A stretch of DNA of 37,155 bases from Lachnospiraceae bacterium (GTDB taxonomy: Bacteria > Bacillota > Clostridia > Lachnospirales > Lachnospiraceae). The stretch covers positions 1 through 37,155 of the forward strand of contig JAFLTA010000027.1 of assembly GCA_022510685.1 (NCBI GenBank). The letters run 5' to 3'. Under the pieces are notes generated by a model, which had not been told where the DNA came from, searched no databases, and worked only from the letters and a program-made list of their open reading frames with translations. Both the position numbers and the translations under genes were made by a program. Positions 18,797 to 29,264 of the stretch are shown one piece after another (the stretch's first letter is position 1; the number at the start of each line of letters is the position of its first letter).

Positions 18797-20015
18797 TTAA
18801 ACAACTTGCTTCTTTTGATTCTTATACCAGTTTTTCACATCTGGTATGATTCTGTCATCCATGCCTTTCAACACGAATGTCAGCTTATACGGATCAACTG
18901 TCCCATCCTCATTCGTATCGCCTACAATCACCTTCTCCACAATGCTCTCAAATACCACCCTGTCGAATTTATCCAGCATATCCGCTTCGGCAATACAGGC
19001 ACGGATTTCCTTCATTCTCCGACTGACATATTTTGCAGATTCCACATTGGCGGAATATAGGGACATTTCCTCATTGAGTTGATTAATCTTACGGGTCAAA
19101 TCCTGATACTTTGCATCGTATGCCTCTTTTTTAATTTTATCATCCAGCAGCATATCGGTCAATTTCTTTCTCTTTGATTCCTGCTTGCTGAGTGCTTTCT
19201 CCAACCTATGCAGCTTAATGGCACTATCGTCATTTGACAAGGCTTCCTCCACAGAACGGATCACAGAATCCAAAACATCATCGAAATTATCTGCCAGTAG
19301 ATGGAACATTTCCATACCGGCTTTTTGCTGGTTGTTGTCTGATGATGGGAACGCCTTGTTAAATACTTCCCACAGAACCCACACTCGCACATACTGCCTC
19401 CTCCGGAGTTACCATAATGGACTTGCCCTCCGGGTGATAATCATAACCGAGACAACCGTTAAATCCCATCATCTCTCCCCGTTTCATCTTCATCTTGATT
19501 CCCATCTTGACGTTTGCAGACAGGGATTCCACCTCATTCTGTGCCAGTGTTGACAATAGAGCCAATGCCATCTCGCTTTCCATAGAAAGGGTGTTGATGT
19601 TCTCTTTCTCAAAGATGACCGCAATTCTCTTTTCCTTTAACATATGGACATACTGGAGTGTATCCACCAGATTACGGGAAAATCGTGAAATGGATTTTGT
19701 AAGGATCACATCAATCATTCCTGCCATGCAGTCATTGATCATCTTCAGGAAACCATCCCTTTTGACCGTTTTCGTCCCGGTAATCGCCTCATCGGAATAT
19801 ATGCCAACCATCACCCACTCCTTGTTTTTGGAAATCTTGTCCTGATAATATTCCTTCTGTGACTGGAAACTCTGCAGCTGTTCCTCGCCATCGGTGCTTA
19901 CCCAGACATACGCTGCCACCCGTTTCCTTTCCAGAGAAAGACCATTACCGATTAGATTCCTGCGTCTGCTGCCATTCTCCCCGGCAGCCTTAATGACTTC
20001 CACTTCTCCTGCCAT
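18797..20015 (-). pseudogene. Large serine recombinase pseudogene (internal deletion, frameshift)
   Basis: Two frames make one decayed gene. The 5' frame (19359-20015) has the resolvase catalytic domain: VAAYVWVSTDGEEQLQSFQS, GIYSDEAITGTKTVKRDGF and TKSISRFSRNLVDTLQYVH. Its Ser40 is present, but the conserved catalytic Arg two residues before it is Trp38. The 3' frame (18797-19390) has the C-terminal coiled-coil region (LEKALSKQESKRKKL, IVEKVIVGDTNEDGTVDPYK). Most of the Recombinase domain and the Cys-rich zinc ribbon between them, some 200 residues, is gone; the frames meet near 19385. A normal start is present with GGAGGAACAGGT. The element it served can no longer be excised by it. Confidence 0.88.
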
Positions 20016-20401: not shown

Positions 20402-20424
20402 ATATACAAAGGAAGGTGATAACT

Positions 20425-20730
20425 ATGGCAAATACAACAGCAGTTTACGCACGTATAGATAATGGGTTAAAAGAAAATGCCGAAAATATCCTTAATCAGT
20501 TAGGCATTTCTCCATCCAGTGCAATCCAAATGTTTTATAGTCAGATTGTTTTAACAAGAGGACTTCCTCTCAATCTTCAATTACCCCCTGCTAAACCCAC
20601 AGCTATCGACAGCATGAGCCGTGCTGAATTGGATGCAGAGCTTACAAAAGGAATGGAGTCCCTGAGTTCCGGCAAAACATATACAGCCGATGAAGTTGAT
20701 GCAGAACTCCATAAGGAATTTGGCATATGA
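20425..20730 (+). CDS. relB: RelB/DinJ-family antitoxin
   Basis: 101 residues. The N-terminus MANTTAVYARIDNGLKENAE plus ILNQLGISPSSAIQMFYSQI is the ribbon-helix-helix DNA-binding domain of RelB/DinJ; the C-terminal half (MSRAELDAELTKGMESL, TADEVDAELHKEFGI) is the toxin-wrapping tail. ATG at 20425 has AAGGTGAT upstream; the GTG at 20416 lies inside that site. Its stop overlaps the start of a RelE-type toxin by four bases, the classic arrangement, but that toxin is destroyed, leaving an orphan antitoxin that could still bind its own operator (20366-20381). Confidence 0.9.
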   Translation: MANTTAVYARIDNGLKENAENILNQLGISPSSAIQMFYSQIVLTRGLPLNLQLPPAKPTAIDSMSRAELDAELTKGMESLSSGKTYTADEVDAELHKEFGI

Positions 20731-20904
20731 GTGACAGCTACAAAGTTATCTATTCTCCCGAAGCCTTAGACGATATCCGAAAATTTAGAAATATGCAAAA
20801 TATCCGTTGACACTTATGTTGTGTACTACTATACTATAGATATGGGAAACCCAACAACATTTCTTCCGGAATATTTACTGAAACAATGCATATACTATAA
20901 TTAA
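20727..20904 (+). pseudogene. relE: RelE/ParE-type toxin pseudogene (internal deletion plus frameshift)
   Basis: It starts ATGA-overlapped with relB and encodes MSDSYKVIYSPEALDDIRKF, the standard N-terminus of this toxin family, then hits a stop at 20808. In another frame the sequence resumes as VDTYVVYYYTID, the conserved core strand near the toxin C-terminus, and ends at 20902. About 40-50 residues between the two blocks are missing. The product cannot be an active mRNA interferase. Confidence 0.8.
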
Positions 20905-21222: not shown

Positions 21223-21792
21223 CTACTCCTTTGGCTCCCAAATAAAAAGATTAAACTTTCTTTCTCCATACTTAGTGTTGTGATCTAAATCTGCATTTTC
21301 CTGCAGCGCTCTCACAAAGCTAATCTTACCTTGATTTGAATTTGAATCATCTACCAATCCTCTGTGATAAAACGCAGGAGCTCCATTCATCAAATCCGCT
21401 AATTGCAAAATCTCTGATTCTTTTGAATTAATCTGACCAATCTGGTCTATTACTTCTTTCTTAAAATCGTAAATATTATTGCAAAGAACCTCTCTTAATT
21501 TTGCAACGCGCTTACCGCCTCTTGTATCCTTTATATCAACCATAATATGATATTTATTATTCGGAGATATCACCGGATCGAGCATGCGGTAATACATTTT
21601 GTAGTACCACAAATCATAATCACCATCATTATATTTATCATGATCCAACGACTGCTTACCGCTTGCCACTAATCCTCTATATAACAAATCCTTATTTTTC
21701 CCAGTCAAGTGACATAGGAGCACTCCGATGTAGTAGACATACACTCTCGACGGAAAAATCTTTGGGCAACGAGTTCTCATAGCCTTCGACAC
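21223..21792 (-). pseudogene. DUF3800 protein, 5'-truncated
   Basis: The recognisable part starts around DLLYRGLVASGKQSLDHDKY and includes the family core LWYYKMYYRMLDP, IMVDIKDTRGGKR, SKESEILQLADLMNGA and the terminal FNLFIWEP. Intact DUF3800 proteins begin some 80-100 residues earlier with a conserved DES strand; that is absent here, and the preceding codons belong to a different small frame (21692-21859). DUF3800 is an RNase H-like fold often found near transposons and defence genes; its activity is unproven. I infer a deletion that removed the N-terminus and fused it out of frame to its neighbour. Confidence 0.65.
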
Positions 21793-21859
21793 GTACAGCC
21801 ATCGGCATCATAAACCGTTCTGAATTAAATACATCGCTTACAAAAGAATCAGGAATCAT
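21692..21859 (-). pseudogene. Remnant of a gene starting inside the helicase stop
   Basis: A 55-residue frame begins 8 bases upstream of the helicase TGA (MIPDSFVSDVFNSERFMMPM, then AVRVEGYENSLPKDF) and soon runs into sequence that looks out of frame (SVESVCLLHRSAPM). The overlap suggests a translationally coupled fourth gene whose body was deleted up to the DUF3800 fragment. Family not recognised. Confidence 0.4.
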
Positions 21860-24800
21860 TCTGCCGGGGATAAAGATTGATAAAGTATTCTTCTATTTTT
21901 TCCTCGCCACAGACAAAAGTCTTGAATGCCTCCTCAAAACTCTCGGAACTGCTCTGACCCAGCAAGGCTCTGTAATAGCCTGCGGCTTTAAGAACATTTC
22001 CCAGATTATGGGCCTCAAAGCTGTAGGGATAGTAGTAGCATTCCCGTATCATACAATACTCTTCATTTTCCATGGGAACAACAAAATTAGGGAACAGTCC
22101 TTTGGTTTCCTCCTTATCCTGATTACACTCCTCAAAAGCCTTTCCAAAGCTACAAAACGGAATATTATTATTTTTATAGTATTTGTCATATAGATTAAGC
22201 CTGTTAGCATAACTCTGATAGCGGTTTATGCGACCTTCACGCTGTTCAAATTTTACAGGGTCAAATTCAAGAGACCAATGGACTATCTTGCGGCAATAGA
22301 CATGAAAATCAAACCCCTCCTGTCCTATTGAGGTGGAAATAAACTGAAAGGGTCTGAATGGAGAATTAAACATCTGTATCTTGTTGATAAGTGTCTTTAC
22401 AGAGGATTTGCTGGTATTCTCTGCGTAATGTCCAACGGCAAATGCTACGGGCATTGTATCATATGTACCAATTGCATCCTTAAACTGCGTACTTACATCG
22501 AATATAGTAACTCCCAGTATATCCGAAAACATCTGAACCTTTTCATTCTCCTCGGCAGGTATGTATTCAAAATATTCGTCAAACACTTCTTCTATACAGC
22601 CGTCCGCCCCATAGGAGATTATTTTTTCATAAAGACTGCTTCCTTCGGCATACGCCACAAGCACACGCAGAGAATCCAGCTTTGTCATATACTTAAAATA
22701 TGCCTTACAAAATCTGGATCTATTATCTTCATTTTTAAAAAGCTCAGGTCGATTAGCTGCATAAAAGTAGGGCGACCCCTGTTTATCGGCATGATGCTTT
22801 TCATCATACTCATACAACTTATTTATCACGCTGTTATTACTGCTATAAATGCTCTGACGGGTGCTATGTAAAGTTAACTTTTCAATGCTGATGACAGTTT
22901 TACTTCCGGGTACCACCTGTATATCCGTAGTTTTTTTCATATCTTTCAGTGTCCTCCGTGCTGCCTCATAGCTCAGCAAAACGCTAAGACTTCTTGGAGT
23001 CATATTATAATCTGCAAAAAACAGTCGCTTTGATATGCCACGTTTCCCCTTAAAAACTCCTTTCAACTCCACATCTCCTCTTGAGGGCGGAATGAACAGC
23101 AGCTTATGAAGCTGCTCCTGGTCAAACAACACATCAAAAAGTTTTGCCAGCCTTGCATTATAAAGCAAATCTCCTCCCATGTCATGGCTGTCAGCAAAAA
23201 GCGGTGCAAATGCTTGAACACGTTGCTTTGACAACATATAGCTGTCATTCATTACATTTTCCAGCTTTTTATACCCCTGTTTGAATGACAGAAACGCAGG
23301 GGTGCTTTTTATATAATCCTTTCTGACCGACAAACTGCCGTTCACCATTCTCTTATATTCTGCAATGTTTTCAGTACAATCGTCAAGCCAGATCTCCTCA
23401 TCCCCATCCTTGTGAAGTACATATTTTTTCTCCTCTGCATCACCAATCAGTTCACTGGCAATATTATCGGCTTTAAAAAGAGCAGGTTTAGTCTCAGAGT
23501 CAGAGCTGGAATAAATATACCATTCCGGCTCATCGTCAGCGTTTGGGGTGGTTATCTGAAAAAGAATGTCTCCGTCAGAGATACGGTTCCACTCTACCTC
23601 TGCAAATTCATTTTTAGGCATACGACTAAATTCAACAGCCAGTATATTTCTCCATACTTCGTTATCGCCCCAATCAAGCGTTTCATTCTCTGACCGTATA
23701 GCAGCCGGTCTGCCTGCCATATACCTTTCAACTCTGGAAATTCCAGCTTCCTTCAGCATCTGCGACTGTTCACAGATACACTTTTTATAGTCATCGTGCA
23801 AGTTTTGCATCTCCTGCTTATCATTATCATTACTCGTTTTATAGGTCTTAACTTTACTGAATTTTTCGCTGTTAAGTTCCTCCCATCTTTTAAACCATTT
23901 TTTTGATTCTCTCTCGTTCAGATCCTCGTTCAGATATTCTATTATCCTTTGAAATTCTTCATAAACATCTGTTTCAATCTCAAGGAAACGCTTACCCTCG
24001 TCAAAATCGTCATTATTGCCATCTTCGGAAACAGACAGCTGTTCAAAATCGGCGTCGATATCTCTATCAAAATTTCTGAGCTCACTTAGCTTTGTGTGAT
24101 ACCTAAATGGGGTAGCACTCATAAGCACTATCTTATTCTTATTCTTATTCTTATGCTCGCCCCTTATCAGCTTATCAATGACAAGACTCATTTCTGAATC
24201 TGTTCTGCCCTTATCTGTGAAAATCTCAGAGTAATTCTGTATTTCATCAGCAAGGAAAAGATCCATTTCCAGCATGTCAATGCTTTTAACCGCCATACAC
24301 TTTCTTGCCACGCGCATCATTTCTTTACAGCAGACATCCATAAAGATTTTCTTTATGGCATCAAACCCCTCTTCCCCTTTGCTATATTTTTTTTCAATTT
24401 TTTTGATAAAAGCAACTGATGGATTTATTTCTGTTGTGCTATCTTTCAGATCCTTTACAAATTTGACAAGTTCTGTTAAAACACCCTCTGTACATTTTGC
24501 ACAAGAGAAATCCTTTTTTATTTTTTCCAGGCATTCTATAGTAAACGCGATCAACATCTCTTTTTGTAATTCAATTTCTATCAGTCTCTTTATATAATTT
24601 GCATCACAATTTTCATTTTTTTTAACCAAGTTTTCAAATTTTTCTATTACATCATCTTCTGTTTTGCTTTGAAAATACTCTTTATACCATTGCGGGTTCT
24701 CGTCTCTTAATTTTTGCAATTCTTGCTTTTCCTCTTTCTCAAGCGGTTTTGTTCGTTTTCCAAATTGACTTCCCCTCTCCAAAAAAATAAGGCGAATGTC

Positions 24801-25454
24801 CTCTGCATGGGGTCTTATCTCCTTGTAATATAATGCAGCAAACAAAGTATTAACAAATTCTTTATAACACTTTTCTTTACACTCATCCCATGATTTCTGA
24901 AACAACTGCTTAAACTCATTTTTTAATTCATTTAAGCCACCTATATTGTTTTCAGCTGCCTTTATTTCAGTCTCAACGCTGTCAGAATTGCCTTTACATA
25001 CCTCTTCCAGCAGAGCATCCTCTTCCCCATCTGCCAAAAGTATATATGCATGAGCACGTTCATCTTTTCTCCCATCGGTTGTAAACTTGATTGTAGTTGA
25101 GGGTGTGAGTGTGTATATATCCAGTGTTTTACCGGCAGCATTTAAATTTGCCGGTTTAAGAAGAGACACAAATCCAAGAGACAACCTTTCTGATGCTCTG
25201 CTAGTCACTTTAATGTTTGTTGCCGTTTCCACCTCTTTTTTCAGCTTGCGTATATTTTCCTTTGCAAGAGCCTCGTTTCCACAAATATACCCCACCCGAA
25301 ACGACTGCTTATCTTTCATCATTTTTGCGATGATATTTGTTGCAGTTATAGTTTTTCCAAGACCCACCTCGTCTGCAAGCAGAAAACGGTTTTTCTTTTT
25401 CAATCTACGGCAGATATTTTCTGCGCCGTCCTGTTGAAATTGTATATTACTCAT
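21849..25454 (-). CDS. SNF2-type superfamily 2 helicase of the accessory island
   Basis: 1201 residues. Motif I ADEVGLGKT is at 27-35, unusually near the N-terminus after a Q-tip-like QFQQDGAENI; motif II LFLADEIQN near 401; motif III VLMSATPFRYH near 445. In the C-terminal lobe, STSIGQEGFDF (motif V, ~1041) and FEQREGRINR (motif VI, ~1071) are present. A Lys/Glu-rich insert of ~300 residues separates motifs Ia and II. No nuclease or methylase domain is visible in it. It is co-oriented 18 bases downstream of the PLD-like gene. SNF2-like helicases paired with PLD-family proteins occur in several anti-phage systems; the role here is inferred from that context. Motifs look intact, so it is probably still active. 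Confidence 0.85.
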   Translation of the reverse strand: MSNIQFQQDGAENICRRLKKKNRFLLADEVGLGKTITATNIIAKMMKDKQSFRVGYICGNEALAKENIRKLKKEVETATNIKVTSRASERLSLGFVSLLKPANLNAAGKTLDIYTLTPSTTIKFTTDGRKDERAHAYILLADGEEDALLEEVCKGNSDSVETEIKAAENNIGGLNELKNEFKQLFQKSWDECKEKCYKEFVNTLFAALYYKEIRPHAEDIRLIFLERGSQFGKRTKPLEKEEKQELQKLRDENPQWYKEYFQSKTEDDVIEKFENLVKKNENCDANYIKRLIEIELQKEMLIAFTIECLEKIKKDFSCAKCTEGVLTELVKFVKDLKDSTTEINPSVAFIKKIEKKYSKGEEGFDAIKKIFMDVCCKEMMRVARKCMAVKSIDMLEMDLFLADEIQNYSEIFTDKGRTDSEMSLVIDKLIRGEHKNKNKNKIVLMSATPFRYHTKLSELRNFDRDIDADFEQLSVSEDGNNDDFDEGKRFLEIETDVYEEFQRIIEYLNEDLNERESKKWFKRWEELNSEKFSKVKTYKTSNDNDKQEMQNLHDDYKKCICEQSQMLKEAGISRVERYMAGRPAAIRSENETLDWGDNEVWRNILAVEFSRMPKNEFAEVEWNRISDGDILFQITTPNADDEPEWYIYSSSDSETKPALFKADNIASELIGDAEEKKYVLHKDGDEEIWLDDCTENIAEYKRMVNGSLSVRKDYIKSTPAFLSFKQGYKKLENVMNDSYMLSKQRVQAFAPLFADSHDMGGDLLYNARLAKLFDVLFDQEQLHKLLFIPPSRGDVELKGVFKGKRGISKRLFFADYNMTPRSLSVLLSYEAARRTLKDMKKTTDIQVVPGSKTVISIEKLTLHSTRQSIYSSNNSVINKLYEYDEKHHADKQGSPYFYAANRPELFKNEDNRSRFCKAYFKYMTKLDSLRVLVAYAEGSSLYEKIISYGADGCIEEVFDEYFEYIPAEENEKVQMFSDILGVTIFDVSTQFKDAIGTYDTMPVAFAVGHYAENTSKSSVKTLINKIQMFNSPFRPFQFISTSIGQEGFDFHVYCRKIVHWSLEFDPVKFEQREGRINRYQSYANRLNLYDKYYKNNNIPFCSFGKAFEECNQDKEETKGLFPNFVVPMENEEYCMIRECYYYPYSFEAHNLGNVLKAAGYYRALLGQSSSESFEEAFKTFVCGEEKIEEYFINLYPRQNDS

Positions 25455-25472
25455 TTAGATACCTCCATTTTT

Positions 25473-25940
25473 TTAAATGAAATTATTGATGAAATCTAAA
25501 AGTTCTTCGTAATACTTATCATCGCCTTTATAAAGCTTTGCATATTTTTCTATATCCTCAAGAGCATGACGGAATTCAGAATCATCCCTATATTTTGTCG
25601 CAAGAGTCATCAACTGCTCAAAGATATAATCTTTATTGACCCTTTTTCGGTTTACACTTCCCTTTCCTCCCGAGGATATACCGTTGGCATGCAGTCTGTT
25701 TACGTTTTTTCTTCCTTTTATGATATTTTTCACAATGTTTTTTATAAGCTCCGCATATGCATTCTCTGCCTCTTTATCAAGCAGCCCGCAAATCCCCTCT
25801 GGTTTCCAATTCTCGTAAATGCTAATACAAAACCATCTGCTTTTATTATTTTCATTGTCCTCATCCACATATTCCTCGGGATTGATTATATGCATATCAA
25901 TCGTGGGAAAAGGTCTATCATCTTCAAATATTACAGGCAA
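25473..25940 (-). CDS. C-terminal part of the frameshifted PLD-family protein
   Basis: This frame has no convincing start (TTG at 25940, no SD). The same reading frame stays open upstream to about 26055, spelling coherent protein (RAKAAHEKISFAEYQVEVRI, REKSVPIIPDSLPVIFEDD) that runs underneath the last 21 codons of the PLD frame. One extra base at the T7/A7 tract 26055-26061 would join the two into a 560-residue protein. The region is acidic and helical (YVDEDNENNKSRWFC, NAYAELIKNIVKNIIKGRKN, YYEELLDFINNFI) and matches no domain I know. I annotate it as part of the gene starting at 27154. Confidence 0.65.
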   Translation of the reverse strand: MPVIFEDDRPFPTIDMHIINPEEYVDEDNENNKSRWFCISIYENWKPEGICGLLDKEAENAYAELIKNIVKNIIKGRKNVNRLHANGISSGGKGSVNRKRVNKDYIFEQLMTLATKYRDDSEFRHALEDIEKYAKLYKGDDKYYEELLDFINNFI

Positions 25941-25990
25941 AGAATCGGGAATTATCGGAACGGATTTTTCCCTGCCACTTATGCGTACCT

Positions 25991-27154
25991 CTACCTGATA
26001 CTCGGCAAATGATATTTTCTCATGAGCAGCCTTGGCTCGAATCTCACATTTATATTTTTTTCATCCTTATCAAAACGGCACTCAATAATTACCTTGTTCA
26101 AAAAACTTTTAAGATGTTTTGCAGCCTCAAAGGTCTCTGTATTATCTTCATACTTTTCGTGAGTTGCCTTCTCACTGTTCTGAAATAAATCCAGAAAACG
26201 TTTATATTCACTCTCATCTGTACAAAATTCAATATTAAACTCTGTGTTTCCCGACTGCTGGTTAATACCTAAACCGTTGTTGGTGGCATTTGACGAGCCG
26301 ACTATCCAATGAGCCTGTTTATCCTCATCATCCCACCAACTATATATTTTTGCATGAAGCGGTGTATCTAAGGGGAAAATACGGGTCTTTTCAACAAAAT
26401 CTTTTTTTAGTTTCGAGAGACCCGAAAACCCGTTATACGTTGACACCAGCATTTCCAGATTATTGCTTATGTTCCCTACAATTTCATCGGATAAAAAAGG
26501 GGATACTACTATAATCTTACTCTTTTCCTTTATTTCCTCTATTTTCCCAGAAACCTCCTTGGCATTCAGAAAATTTACCCCGCCACCGTTTTCCTGTCTG
26601 AAATCGGTTTCTCTCAATTCATTTAGAACGGTTTGGACATCGCTGCTTTGACATTCATTAAAAACCGACTTAAAAAATTCGGATACCTTTTCTCCATTTA
26701 CCTTTACCTCTTCAGAGAAGGCTCCTACCTTCCCGCATACACAGGCGAAAGCATCAATAAGCATTGAATCTGTAAGATTTTTGCTCATAACAAGGAGTGT
26801 GTACCGAATATCATTCTTGTCCGTTTGATTTTTATATCTCAGAAGTATCACCTTGGGGTGATACGCCCCCTTTTCTTGCCTAATACCATGCAGATATTTT
26901 TCGGATATTTCCTGCACTATCCCTTGACCCTTACTGCGTGAGAATGCATCGTAAAACACATGAACTTTGTTATCCTTGATAAGATGAATCGCATCAAGAG
27001 AATAAAGCACTCTTATAAGATATCTTGTATCCAGAGAAAATGTGGTCATATATACCGATGTAAGTTCAAAGGATTTATCTCTTAAATTTTCGGGCAAAAT
27101 AAATGCCAAATCATTTTGTACATCAAAGGTATTATCATTATCCGTAATCCACAT
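25991..27154 (-). CDS. Phospholipase D-like (PLD superfamily) protein, N-terminal part before frameshift
   Basis: 387 residues in this frame. Two HxK motifs mark a PLD-type bilobed fold: YHPKVILLRY (His99, Lys101) with LLVMSKNLTDS, and LHAKIYSWWDD (His267, Lys269) with WIVGSSNATNNGLG (286 on). PLD-superfamily proteins in such clusters usually act as nucleases. The last 21 residues (after Lys366) look out of frame: a -1 shift within A7 at 26055-26061 would continue into the 25473 frame and give 560 residues. So the gene is either disrupted, phase-variable by slippage, or miscounted in sequencing. Its start is 2 bases after the stop of the 175-aa gene; the helicase follows. Confidence 0.78.
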   Translation of the reverse strand: MWITDNDNTFDVQNDLAFILPENLRDKSFELTSVYMTTFSLDTRYLIRVLYSLDAIHLIKDNKVHVFYDAFSRSKGQGIVQEISEKYLHGIRQEKGAYHPKVILLRYKNQTDKNDIRYTLLVMSKNLTDSMLIDAFACVCGKVGAFSEEVKVNGEKVSEFFKSVFNECQSSDVQTVLNELRETDFRQENGGGVNFLNAKEVSGKIEEIKEKSKIIVVSPFLSDEIVGNISNNLEMLVSTYNGFSGLSKLKKDFVEKTRIFPLDTPLHAKIYSWWDDEDKQAHWIVGSSNATNNGLGINQQSGNTEFNIEFCTDESEYKRFLDLFQNSEKATHEKYEDNTETFEAAKHLKSFLNKVIIECRFDKDEKNINVRFEPRLLMRKYHLPSIR

Positions 27155-27156
27155 AA

Positions 27157-27684
27157 TTATTTTGTACCTCCAGCTTTAATATTAAGTAATATTTTCGGTA
27201 TTTCCGACAATTCGACCTGTTCAGGTTTTACAAGCCCATTCAGTATTTTCATATCGACACGATAGTAAGGCTTCGCTGAAGCTCTGAACTGCAGTTTGAT
27301 GAATCCTTTATCTATTTGATCACATATATCCTCGAATGAAACCACCCACAAATTCACCTGCCACTTACCTTTTGCATCCGATTTGACATCCTGCGTAAGC
27401 ACTGCATAACCGTTTTTCGGTTCTTTTTCTTTTATATCTTTTATAAATGGATACACAGGCCACACATCTCTGCCCTCTGCTATACTCAGGATATAATATA
27501 CCGTATTATCTTTAGCATCTTTAACAAGATTTTTAGATCTTATATTCTCTGCTGTATAGCCGTTTACACCTTTAGCAGCCAGAGATTTCTTTATAAGACT
27601 TGAAGTATTCGTACCACTTCCCCTTTGAAGATTTATGCTGTTTTTTTTATTCAACTGTCCCAGCCAACCATATTCAACACTCAT
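27157..27684 (-). CDS. Hypothetical 175-aa protein, first intact gene of the helicase/PLD operon
   Basis: No family recognised. It begins MSVEYGWLGQLNKKNSINLQ and has a mixed alpha/beta look with conserved-looking aromatic stretches (YYILSIAEGRDVWPVYPFIK, WQVNLWVVSFEDICDQIDKG, LQFRASAKPYYRVDMKILN). No membrane segment, signal or nuclease motif is visible. GAGGAG sits 9 bases before the ATG. Two bases separate its stop from the PLD-like start, so it is translated with that protein and probably belongs to the same complex or system, perhaps as an adaptor or recognition subunit; that role is inference. Confidence 0.72.
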   Translation of the reverse strand: MSVEYGWLGQLNKKNSINLQRGSGTNTSSLIKKSLAAKGVNGYTAENIRSKNLVKDAKDNTVYYILSIAEGRDVWPVYPFIKDIKEKEPKNGYAVLTQDVKSDAKGKWQVNLWVVSFEDICDQIDKGFIKLQFRASAKPYYRVDMKILNGLVKPEQVELSEIPKILLNIKAGGTK

Positions 27685-27701
27685 TTTATGCAGCTCCTCT
27701 T

Positions 27702-27794
27702 TTAACTGTATCGGGGGTATTTCCCCTTTTCCTCATCCAAAATCTCATGTATCTTATCTACATCAATTTCGATTTTCAGACAATCATCCGGCTA
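27702..27794 (-). pseudogene. 3' stump of a lost gene abutting rlmD
   Basis: Directly after the rlmD stop codon an open frame of 30 codons reads PDDCLKIEIDVDKIHEILDE then EKGKYPRYS and ends in TAA, 18 bases before the 175-aa gene. It has no start and looks like a genuine helical C-terminus. I infer that a further upstream gene of the island operon was cut away at position ~27794, which would be the island's right boundary. Confidence 0.45.
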
Positions 27795-29207
27795 CTATTC
27801 TTTCAGTGATAATTTAGATACGCTCTCCACATGATACGACATCCCAAACATATCGCACCCTCTCACCCGTTCCAACTCATACCCGTTCTCCCGCAAATAC
27901 TTCAAATCCCTTGCCAATGTCCCCGGGTCGCAACTCACATAGACGATTCTTTTAGGCTCCATCTCGATTACTGTCTGCAGCAGCTTTTCCTCACAGCCTT
28001 TACGTGGCGGGTCGAGAACTACCACATCTGCCCGAAGCGCATCCCCGCTCTCCCGGAATTTTGCAGGCACTACTTCCTCTGCCGCCCCCACGAAAAATTC
28101 CGCATTGGTGATATGATTCAACTCAGCATTATATTTGGCGTCTTCTATTGCTTGAGGTACGATTTCCACGCCATATACCTTGTCCGCTTTTTGGGATAGA
28201 AATAATGATATCGTACCGATGCCGCAGTACAAATCCCAAACAGTCTCCGCACCCTGTAAGTCTGCGTATTCTAATGCCGTTTCGTACAATCGTTTTGTCT
28301 GTTCCGGATTCACCTGATAGAAGGAAAGTGGCGAAATCCGGTAGCGCAGCTCTCCGATACAATCCTCAATGTATGGTTCTCCATACAAAGGAATAATTTC
28401 TTCTCCCAGTATCACGTTAGTGTCCGCTTCGTTGACATTCAGGCATATACTAGCTATTTGCGGATTTACCTGTCGCAATTGTTCTACAAGCAATTCTGAC
28501 TTAGGCAGTTTCTTCCCATTAATGATGAGGCAAACCATAATCTGTCCTGTTTCTTTCCCCACACGGATTAAAATGTGACGGACAAGTCCCCGATGCTCTT
28601 TTTCCACATACGCCGGAATACGATTATCTTTCATAAAGTCCAGAACCGTATCTAATATAAGCTGGTTAGACGGGTCTCCCACTTCACAGTTACGGCAGGG
28701 AATGATTTGATGGGTACGACCTACATAAAAACCGGCAACCGGTTCCCCGTCCCGGTTATAGCCAACAGGATATTGAGATTTATTGCGATAATGATATGGG
28801 GATGCCATCCCCATAATGGGTTCAACGATAACTTGATTCACATCAACCCCACCAATGCGCTTAAGACAGTTTAGGATTTTCTCCTCTTTCCACTGCAACT
28901 GCTTTTCATAACTGCAGTGCTGCAACTGACAACCTCCGCATTGTCTGGCAACAGGACATTTGGGCTCTACACGAAAAGGAGACGGCTTCACGATTTCCAG
29001 CAACCTAGCATAACCAAAGTGCTTGCGTGTTTTCATGACACGTACCCGAACCAGATCGCCAATCAATGCATCCTTCACAAAAAGGGCGTACCCATCAGCA
29101 CGCCCAATCCCTTCGCCTTCCGTTCCCATATCTTCTATTTTTAAAAGCAATTCATCGTTTTTTCGACAGACAACTTTTTTCTCTTTCTTTCTCTTATCCT
29201 TTGCCAT
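27795..29207 (-). CDS. rlmD: 23S rRNA (uracil-C5)-methyltransferase, RlmD/TrmA family
   Basis: 470 residues. A TRAM domain (LLLKIEDMGTEGEGIGRADG) is followed by the iron-sulfur cysteines CPVARQCGGCQLQHC, the SAM-binding VWDLYCGIGTISLFL, DVVVLDPPRKGCEEKLL and the catalytic VSCDPGTLARD, where the Cys attacks uracil C6. It makes m5U in 23S rRNA; some relatives modify two sites (RlmCD), which cannot be separated here. The start at 29207 is chosen by AAGAGGTGG upstream and the Lys-rich N-terminus. It lies 57 bases downstream of yhaM. The island begins right at its stop codon. Confidence 0.93.
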   Translation of the reverse strand: MAKDKRKKEKKVVCRKNDELLLKIEDMGTEGEGIGRADGYALFVKDALIGDLVRVRVMKTRKHFGYARLLEIVKPSPFRVEPKCPVARQCGGCQLQHCSYEKQLQWKEEKILNCLKRIGGVDVNQVIVEPIMGMASPYHYRNKSQYPVGYNRDGEPVAGFYVGRTHQIIPCRNCEVGDPSNQLILDTVLDFMKDNRIPAYVEKEHRGLVRHILIRVGKETGQIMVCLIINGKKLPKSELLVEQLRQVNPQIASICLNVNEADTNVILGEEIIPLYGEPYIEDCIGELRYRISPLSFYQVNPEQTKRLYETALEYADLQGAETVWDLYCGIGTISLFLSQKADKVYGVEIVPQAIEDAKYNAELNHITNAEFFVGAAEEVVPAKFRESGDALRADVVVLDPPRKGCEEKLLQTVIEMEPKRIVYVSCDPGTLARDLKYLRENGYELERVRGCDMFGMSYHVESVSKLSLKE

Positions 29208-29264
29208 AATCCACCTCTTAGAAAAATGCTCTCTATACAGGCAATTGATTTCCAATAGCAGCAG

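What the first reader, a model, noticed from the sequence alone, without database searches (positions are those of the whole stretch)
21223..27794. Helicase + PLD-like + small unknown protein operon: candidate anti-phage system in a decaying island
Seen: one minus-strand operon with a lost gene stump, a 175-aa unknown, a two-HxK PLD-superfamily protein, a 1201-aa SNF2-type helicase with motifs I-III, V and VI intact, a deleted gene start and a DUF3800 fragment, inserted directly at the rlmD stop and flanked on the other side by a toxin-antitoxin and serine recombinase remnant. Known: SF2 helicases with PLD-family nucleases recur in defence systems (DISARM and Mokosh, for example). Inferred: this is a defence module. 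It has no methylase, DUF1998 protein or restriction subunit, so it does not fit DISARM or a restriction-modification type, and I cannot name it with confidence.
Basis: partly seen in the sequence, partly recalled or inferred. Interest (0 to 1): 0.85.

Follow-up and report, generated by a model that had tools for sequence, protein, structure and literature searches.

The report
Divergent Azaca-like phage-defence operon, broken copy
A bacterium carries a probably damaged copy of a rare cousin of the known phage-defence system Azaca, in which the usual first protein is missing and an unrelated small protein stands in its place.

Summary
The operon is real. It is not canonical Azaca: ZacA (DUF6361, ~400 aa), present in 69 of 84 related loci (13 of the other 15 have under 3 kb of contig upstream), was not found in this genome, and the 175-aa protein in its place shows no detectable relation to ZacA. 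Small protein + PLD + helicase recur on one contig in MAG L082 and, split over two contigs, in a second MAG (L170, L083). These helicases form a separate clade (support 1.0). I read this as an Azaca sister type with an exchanged first subunit, probably a translocase-nuclease complex comparable to SauUSI; the mechanism is inferred. The window copy is probably defective: its PLD gene is split into two reading frames within 25941-26061, while L082 has it whole. The DUF3800 and RelB remnants beside it look like debris at a mobile-DNA hotspot behind rlmD, not parts of the system. New variant of a known kind, moderate interest.

The parts
27157..27684 (-). 175-aa small protein, first gene of the trio, in the place of ZacA; homologues L082 181 aa and L170 184 aa
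25991..27154 (-). ZacB-like PLD-superfamily protein, N-terminal 387 aa with both HxK half-sites; reading frame lost near its end
25473..25940 (-). 155-aa ORF = C-terminal part of the same ZacB-like gene in another frame
   Evidence: (E 2e-16 to L082 PLD residues 470-610)
26055..26061 (-). seven-base homopolymer inside the stretch where the reading frame of the PLD gene changes; absent at the same place in L082
21849..25454 (-). ZacC-like SF2 helicase, 1201 aa, one open frame, all motifs
21223..21792 (-). DUF3800 (PDC-M04A) fragment, N-terminus lost; neighbouring debris, no counterpart found in L077-L160
21783..21845 (+). RelB-like remnant between helicase and DUF3800 fragment
20416..20730 (+). 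RelB antitoxin gene; the frame behind it, a toxin by position only, stops after about 26 codons
19359..20015 (-). serine recombinase fragment (Pfam Resolvase N-terminal domain)
18797..19390 (-). 197-aa ORF overlapping the resolvase fragment; looks like the recombinase C-terminal part by eye only, no Pfam match
27795..29255 (-). rlmD, host gene whose 3' side is the insertion hotspot

Best explanation
The locus is a degraded copy of a three-gene anti-phage or anti-plasmid operon that is a sister type of Azaca: a ~180-aa first protein (instead of ZacA/DUF6361), a ZacB-like PLD nuclease and a ZacC-like SF2 helicase. Proposed working of the intact system: the helicase is a double-strand DNA translocase, the PLD protein (two half-sites, HPK...SKN and HAK...GSSN, forming one catalytic centre) cuts DNA, and the small, fastest-changing subunit decides when or where the complex is licensed. 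Motor and nuclease would then shred the invading DNA, as SauUSI does within one polypeptide. Shown: gene content, motifs, recurrence, clade, no ZacA found, two reading frames in this copy. Inferred: defence function (from ZacB/ZacC homology), complex formation, DNA as target, role of the small subunit. In this genome the system is probably impaired or inactive, because the PLD gene is split into two frames.
For: PADLOC ZacC 1.1e-118 and ZacB 3.4e-40; L081 and L083 helicases also match ZacC (5.7e-88, 2.6e-47). PLD gene then helicase gene, as in 69 of 69 loci with a clear ZacA (order A-B-C). Trio on one contig in L082 (181, 613, 1120 aa); small protein + PLD in L170 and helicase C-terminus in L083, both in MAG G891. 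The small proteins are homologues: window with L170 E 8e-12 and with L082 E 1e-10 as single comparisons, and each of the three, held out, is the best unseen hit of a profile of the other two among 5,845 ORFs (E 3e-8, 1e-3, 3e-3). Monophyly of the four helicases, support 1.0. No ZacA match in G000, G890, G891, G892, while 4 of 4 positive-control genomes are found in the same search. PLD model of L082: best PDB match SauUSI (E 4.8e-4, prob 1.00), next Salmonella Nuc (E 0.088); Pfam RE_NgoFVII 7.5e-6. Small protein diverges most: 22-33% identity, PLD 35-43%, helicase 45-53%. Two frames. SauUSI mechanism: abstract of PMC7913695.
Against: No function is shown for this clade. Only three related MAGs were found, two of them with the operon cut by contig ends. 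L082 and L170 small proteins do not match each other significantly (E 0.11); they are linked through the window protein. ZacB/ZacC scores are far below those of the one canonical set scanned first (137 vs 487 and 396 vs 1002 bits), the window ZacB being a fragment. The small protein has no family in any of the four libraries (one weak NCBIfam hit of 14.7 bits, cut-off 100), and its model is only moderate (pLDDT 64), so its licensing role is a guess. In canonical Azaca the first subunit is not clearly the fastest (ZacA 35.6%, ZacB 36.2% over 259 pairs). The frame change could be an assembly or sequencing error, in which case the copy may be active.
Confidence: 0.7

Rival explanations
1. Simply Azaca: an ordinary member that lost its zacA by deletion, the 175-aa gene being an unrelated neighbour.
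For: ZacB and ZacC matches; the window copy is visibly decaying.
Against: Two other genomes have a homologue of the 175-aa protein directly before the PLD gene and no ZacA match. L082 has about 8 kb upstream of its helicase without ZacA. The four helicases form their own clade.
Confidence: 0.1
2. The same operon, but not defence against phages: a plasmid-maintenance, conjugation-control or DNA-repair module of a mobile element.
For: It lies at an insertion hotspot with recombinase and toxin-antitoxin remnants. A 2026 review lists the Azaca mechanism as unknown (PMC12926258, passage).
Against: Canonical relatives are a described anti-phage system (PADLOC models; Millman 2022 cited in PMC10952713, passage; the original paper is not held). 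I recognised no replication or transfer gene beside the trio among the ORFs looked at in L082 and L170, six of which were scanned.
Confidence: 0.12
3. The small protein is itself a PD-(D/E)XK-fold nuclease subunit, so that the system has two nucleases.
For: The first 14 of the 50 Foldseek PDB matches listed (473 at E<=10) are archaeal Holliday junction resolvases, best E 0.016; the restriction enzymes BsaXI and SwaI are also in the list. That these share the PD-(D/E)XK fold is recalled.
Against: No match at E<=0.001, TM-scores 0.25-0.48 for those 14, moderate model (pLDDT 64), and I see no D...ExK pattern conserved across the three homologues.
Confidence: 0.12
4. The PLD gene is not broken but is expressed by ribosomal frameshifting or transcriptional slippage at the homopolymer 26055-26061.
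For: The frame change lies in a stretch with a seven-base run.
Against: L082 reads through the same place in one frame and has no such run. L170's PLD stays in frame past it as far as the contig goes (459 aa). A single draft assembly of 102 contigs cannot separate this from error.
Confidence: 0.08

Closest known systems
Azaca (ZacA-ZacB-ZacC)
   Same: PLD protein followed by SF2 helicase in one tight operon; PADLOC models ZacB and ZacC; shared helicase and HxK motifs
   Different: No ZacA (DUF6361); ~180-aa unrelated first protein instead; helicase 24-28% identical to the 11 canonical ZacC aligned, with extra insertions; separate clade
SauUSI (ATP-dependent PLD-helicase endonuclease)
   Same: PLD nuclease plus helicase-like ATPase; best PDB fold match of the PLD part
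   Different: SauUSI is one polypeptide with its own target-recognition domain for a methylated site (abstract and section headings); here separate genes and no recognised target domain
Mokosh
   Same: PLD-like domain listed for both Mokosh types and Azaca (PMC10952713 table passage); helicases MkoA, MkoC (PMC12278908 passage)
   Different: No Mokosh model among the PADLOC matches of the seven window proteins
DISARM (DrmD) and Dpd (DpdE)
   Same: Weak local helicase matches
   Different: No partner genes recognised; matches cover short helicase stretches only
PDC-M27 (PADLOC candidate)
   Same: B and C models give weak local matches to the PLD and helicase
   Different: Scores 24 and 66 bits against 137 and 396 for ZacB and ZacC

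Membership tests
Azaca | ZacA (DUF6361, ~400 aa) as first gene | tested here: not met
   No PDLC03828 match in G000, G890, G891, G892 at E<=10; 4 of 4 positive controls found in the same search (alone had no positive). No profile relation of the small protein to ZacA. The genomes are drafts
Azaca | ZacB, PLD-superfamily protein ~600 aa | tested here: met
   E 3.4e-40, best stretch residues 80-358; gene split into two frames in the window, whole in L082
Azaca | ZacC, SF2 helicase ~1000-1100 aa | tested here: met
   E 1.1e-118, all motifs, but in a separate clade
Azaca | Gene order ZacB then ZacC | tested here: met
   canonical order A-B-C in 69 of 69 loci with a clear ZacA
Azaca | Anti-phage activity | not testable with these tools
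   needs plaque assays with an intact operon
DISARM | Partner genes (DUF1998 protein, DNA methylase; recalled) beside the helicase | tested here: not met
   No such family among the seven window proteins scanned or the six L082 and L170 proteins scanned; only local DrmD/DrmA helicase matches
Mokosh | Mko proteins | tested here: not met
   No Mko model among the PADLOC matches of the seven window proteins
PD-(D/E)XK nucleases (small protein) | Fold with conserved D...ExK site (recalled) | tested here: inconclusive
   Weak fold matches from a moderate model; no conserved catalytic pattern seen in three homologues

The most novel reading that the evidence does not exclude
A second type of Azaca, not described in the papers I could see, in which the first, presumably sensing or licensing, subunit has been exchanged for an unrelated ~180-aa protein while nuclease and motor were kept. 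The first subunit of Azaca-like systems would then be a replaceable recognition module.
Probability: 0.5. Interest if true: 0.55.

Novelty: new variant of a known kind. Interest (0 to 1): 0.42.

Why it matters
The mechanism of Azaca is given as unknown in a 2026 review (PMC12926258, passage). Two types that share nuclease and helicase but differ entirely in the first protein let one ask what that protein does: swap it and see whether the triggered phage range follows. It also shows that searches that require ZacA, ZacB and ZacC models would miss such operons, since two of the genes score low and the third has no model.

Tried and rejected
Canonical Azaca, DISARM, Mokosh and PD-(D/E)XK nuclease as filings: see Membership tests; Dpd and PDC-M27 gave only weak local matches. 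Small protein as a shortened ZacA: rejected on hhalign probability 0.0 and scores below 0 bits against a profile of 76 ZacA sequences, some of them the same gene fetched twice, although both have a GW-like motif near the N-terminus (noted by eye). Relatives of the small protein: none in plasmids (window protein, L170 protein) or viral contigs; phages were searched with the L082 helicase only (one canonical-type record); PHROGs gave nothing for the window protein and only weak hits for its two homologues (E 0.028, 0.14). In 195 relatives the single sequence found itself and 23 genomes with E between 0.0068 and 1; the best of these, L063, was looked at and is unrelated, the rest not. In 387 family genomes the three-sequence profile found itself and six weak matches at E 0.0017-0.0099, five in frames of 531-1093 aa and one in a frame of 154 aa near a contig end; not followed. 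The single helicase sequence confirmed no relative in genome or viral contigs and seven distant ones in 195 relatives; A2 found none in viral contigs; the L082 PLD found none in plasmids. Solved structures by sequence: none for the helicase at E<=0.001, weak 2c1l (restriction endonuclease, E 0.028) for the PLD, E 0.26 for the small protein. The viral fold library gave the small protein one match below 1e-3, an uncharacterised Megaviridae protein at 9% identity; not interpreted. The 217-aa ORF before the small gene of L082 as a fourth component: only a weak Pfam match under its cut-off, no such ORF seen before the small gene in L170; left open. L061 (G342) has a helicase with a ZacC match but was not classified further. 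Attachment-site repeat at the rlmD end: none found.
Full report
What is there. On the minus strand, in order of transcription, lie a 175-aa ORF (27157-27684), a 387-aa PLD-superfamily ORF (25991-27154), a 155-aa ORF (25473-25940), a 1201-aa helicase (21849-25454) and a DUF3800 fragment (21223-21792). rlmD (RlmD equivalog model) ends at 27795, 110 bases before the start of the 175-aa gene. The window is contig C23 of an unnamed assembly of 102 contigs and 2.77 Mb, 90.65% complete and 5.33% contaminated.

Identity. Seven window proteins were scanned. Against PADLOC the helicase matches ZacC of Azaca at E 1.1e-118 and the 387-aa ORF matches ZacB at 3.4e-40; the next models are far weaker (PDC-M27C 4.5e-19, PDC-M27B 2.5e-6). 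The 175-aa and 155-aa proteins match nothing, and the DUF3800 fragment matches PDC-M04A at 1.3e-47. Pfam gives RE_NgoFVII (PLD, 7.5e-6) for the 387-aa ORF and ResIII and DEAD for the helicase. Helicase motifs I, II, III, V and VI are present. The PLD ORF has HPK at residue 99 and HAK at 267, with GSSN at 286; both HxK histidines and lysines are invariant in the nine PLD proteins aligned. The best PDB fold match of the L082 PLD model is SauUSI, E 4.8e-4, then Salmonella Nuc at E 0.088. That model has mean pLDDT 58, and most of its last 40% is below 50.

The PLD gene is split. The intact PLD protein of L082 (613 aa) contains relatives of both window pieces: the 387-aa ORF (37%, E 1e-59) and the 155-aa ORF at residues 470-610 (32%, E 2e-16). 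The reading frame changes within about 120 bases that include a seven-base homopolymer at 26055-26061; L082 has no such run there and reads in one frame. So the window copy is defective, or the assembly has an error, or the place slips; I think the first two likelier. Intact copies exist.

Canonical Azaca. Of these 84, 69 have a ZacA at E<=1e-20, and in 69 of these 69 the order is ZacA, ZacB, ZacC. Thirteen have none but also less than 3 kb of contig upstream of the helicase, L081 and L083 among them; one (L108) has a weak ZacA (E 1.8e-4; PADLOC 1.4e-5); and one (L082) has none with about 8 kb upstream. One canonical set, L056, scores ZacA 4e-92, ZacB 2e-146 and ZacC 9e-302.

The window type. 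L082 (Oscillospiraceae MAG HAN075, JAFLUI010000083) has a 181-aa homologue of the 175-aa protein (26%, E 4e-7 among the ORFs searched; E 1e-10 as a single comparison), then the 613-aa PLD protein, then a 1120-aa helicase (52% identical in the alignment). L083 (Lachnospiraceae MAG RGIG8543) begins inside a helicase of this type. Another contig of the same MAG (L170) ends inside a PLD protein of this type, preceded by a 184-aa homologue of the small protein (E 8e-12); that the two contigs adjoin is inferred. The L082 and L170 small proteins do not match each other directly (E 0.11), but each of the three is the best unseen hit among 5,845 ORFs for a profile of the other two, at E 3e-8 (window), 1e-3 (L082) and 3e-3 (L170). 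L081 (Erysipelotrichaceae MAG RUG14120) also begins inside such a helicase; no PLD or small homologue was found in that MAG. A tree of 79 helicases groups window, L081, L082 and L083 with support 1.0, apart from all others (FastTree, midpoint root; L083 is only 340 aa). In 397 genomes of the window's family only its own carries this type at E<=1e-30; five others have matches of 145-166 bits against 1557. In 247 genomes of L082's family only its own does at E<=1e-40; one other has 158 bits.

ZacA is missing. The ZacA model finds nothing in the window's genome or in the three MAGs, and finds 4 of 4 control genomes in the same search (the earlier one search had no positive and showed nothing by itself). 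All are drafts, so absence is not proof. Profile comparison finds no relation of the small protein to ZacA. None of the four family libraries names the small protein (one weak NCBIfam hit far under its cut-off), nor its two homologues. Its AlphaFold model (pLDDT 64, pTM 0.63) weakly resembles Holliday junction resolvases (first 14 matches, E 0.016 and up), but I see no D...ExK pattern shared by the three homologues.

How it may work. A PLD nuclease paired with a helicase motor suggests DNA cleavage driven by translocation. SauUSI does this in one chain: target recognition activates ATP hydrolysis and translocation, and DNA between sites is shredded (abstract of PMC7913695). The small protein changes fastest (22-33% identity between the three genomes, PLD 35-43%, helicase 45-53%; the window PLD cut to its first 368 residues, the L170 PLD and the L083 helicase incomplete), as a recognition or licensing subunit might. 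In canonical Azaca, over 259 of 400 sampled pairs from 65 loci, those with ZacC identity of 38-60%, ZacA is not clearly faster than ZacB (35.6% against 36.2%), so the analogy is weak. None of these steps has been tested.

Setting. I fetched the rlmD region of 8 of the 22 other same-genus genomes with an rlmD match. rlmD and the gene before it (an HD-domain protein, best NCBIfam model YhaM but under its cut-off) are side by side in 7 of 8, the eighth being a 3.3-kb contig, while of the window's genes after rlmD only the recombinase (L207) and RelB (L208) found a match. In 4 of the 5 loci with at least 3 kb after rlmD there are mobile-element or defence-type genes: L207 has resolvase and recombinase-domain pieces and a ThsB TIR protein; L203 has ParB; L204 has a ParA-type ATPase and ParB; L208 has RelB and a resolvase domain. 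The fifth, L206, starts with a glycosyl hydrolase. Insertion of a serine-recombinase element into rlmD is described for Streptococcus (PMC13214566, passages), and of CTn5 into rumA/rlmD in C. difficile (PMC4320837, passage and section heading). No flanking repeat was found here. Around the operon lie remnants: a resolvase-domain fragment, RelB with a short open frame behind it, a second RelB-like piece at 21783-21845, and DUF3800 without its start.

Literature. Twelve papers in the library hold 'Azaca' with 'phage' and 'defense systems' (listing). I read passages of four of them (PMC10952713, PMC12278908, PMC13321033, PMC12926258). None of these passages mentions a type without ZacA. The founding paper (Millman 2022) is not held. 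A search for ZacB, ZacC and DUF6361 listed 15 of 37,858 papers, all unrelated by title. I therefore cannot exclude that the type has been described elsewhere.

Verdict. A probably defective copy of a rare Azaca sister type. The exchange of the first subunit is the point of interest.

Noticed in passing
   Followed up: partly
window 20727-20807 (+): The open frame behind RelB, a toxin by position only, stops after about 26 codons.
   Followed up: no
L108 1221-8287: Lachnospiraceae UBA3802 carries another divergent Azaca-like operon: 467 aa (ZacA 1.4e-5), 656 aa (ZacB 7.8e-23) and 1237 aa (ZacC 8.7e-147), the helicase branching off at the base of the canonical ones.
   Followed up: partly
L207 5490-7775: In a same-genus genome rlmD is followed by resolvase pieces and a ThsB-type TIR protein, a defence-type gene at the same hotspot.
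   Followed up: partly
L169 4864-11141 (MT835621.1): A record filed as an unverified bacteriophage scaffold from human faeces carries a canonical Azaca trio (ZacA 8e-87, ZacB 6e-152, ZacC E 0), beside restriction-type ORFs named by eye.
   Followed up: partly
L082 2211-5582: Before the small gene of L082 lie a WYL/WCX-domain protein on the other strand and a 217-aa ORF of unknown family directly upstream.
   Followed up: partly
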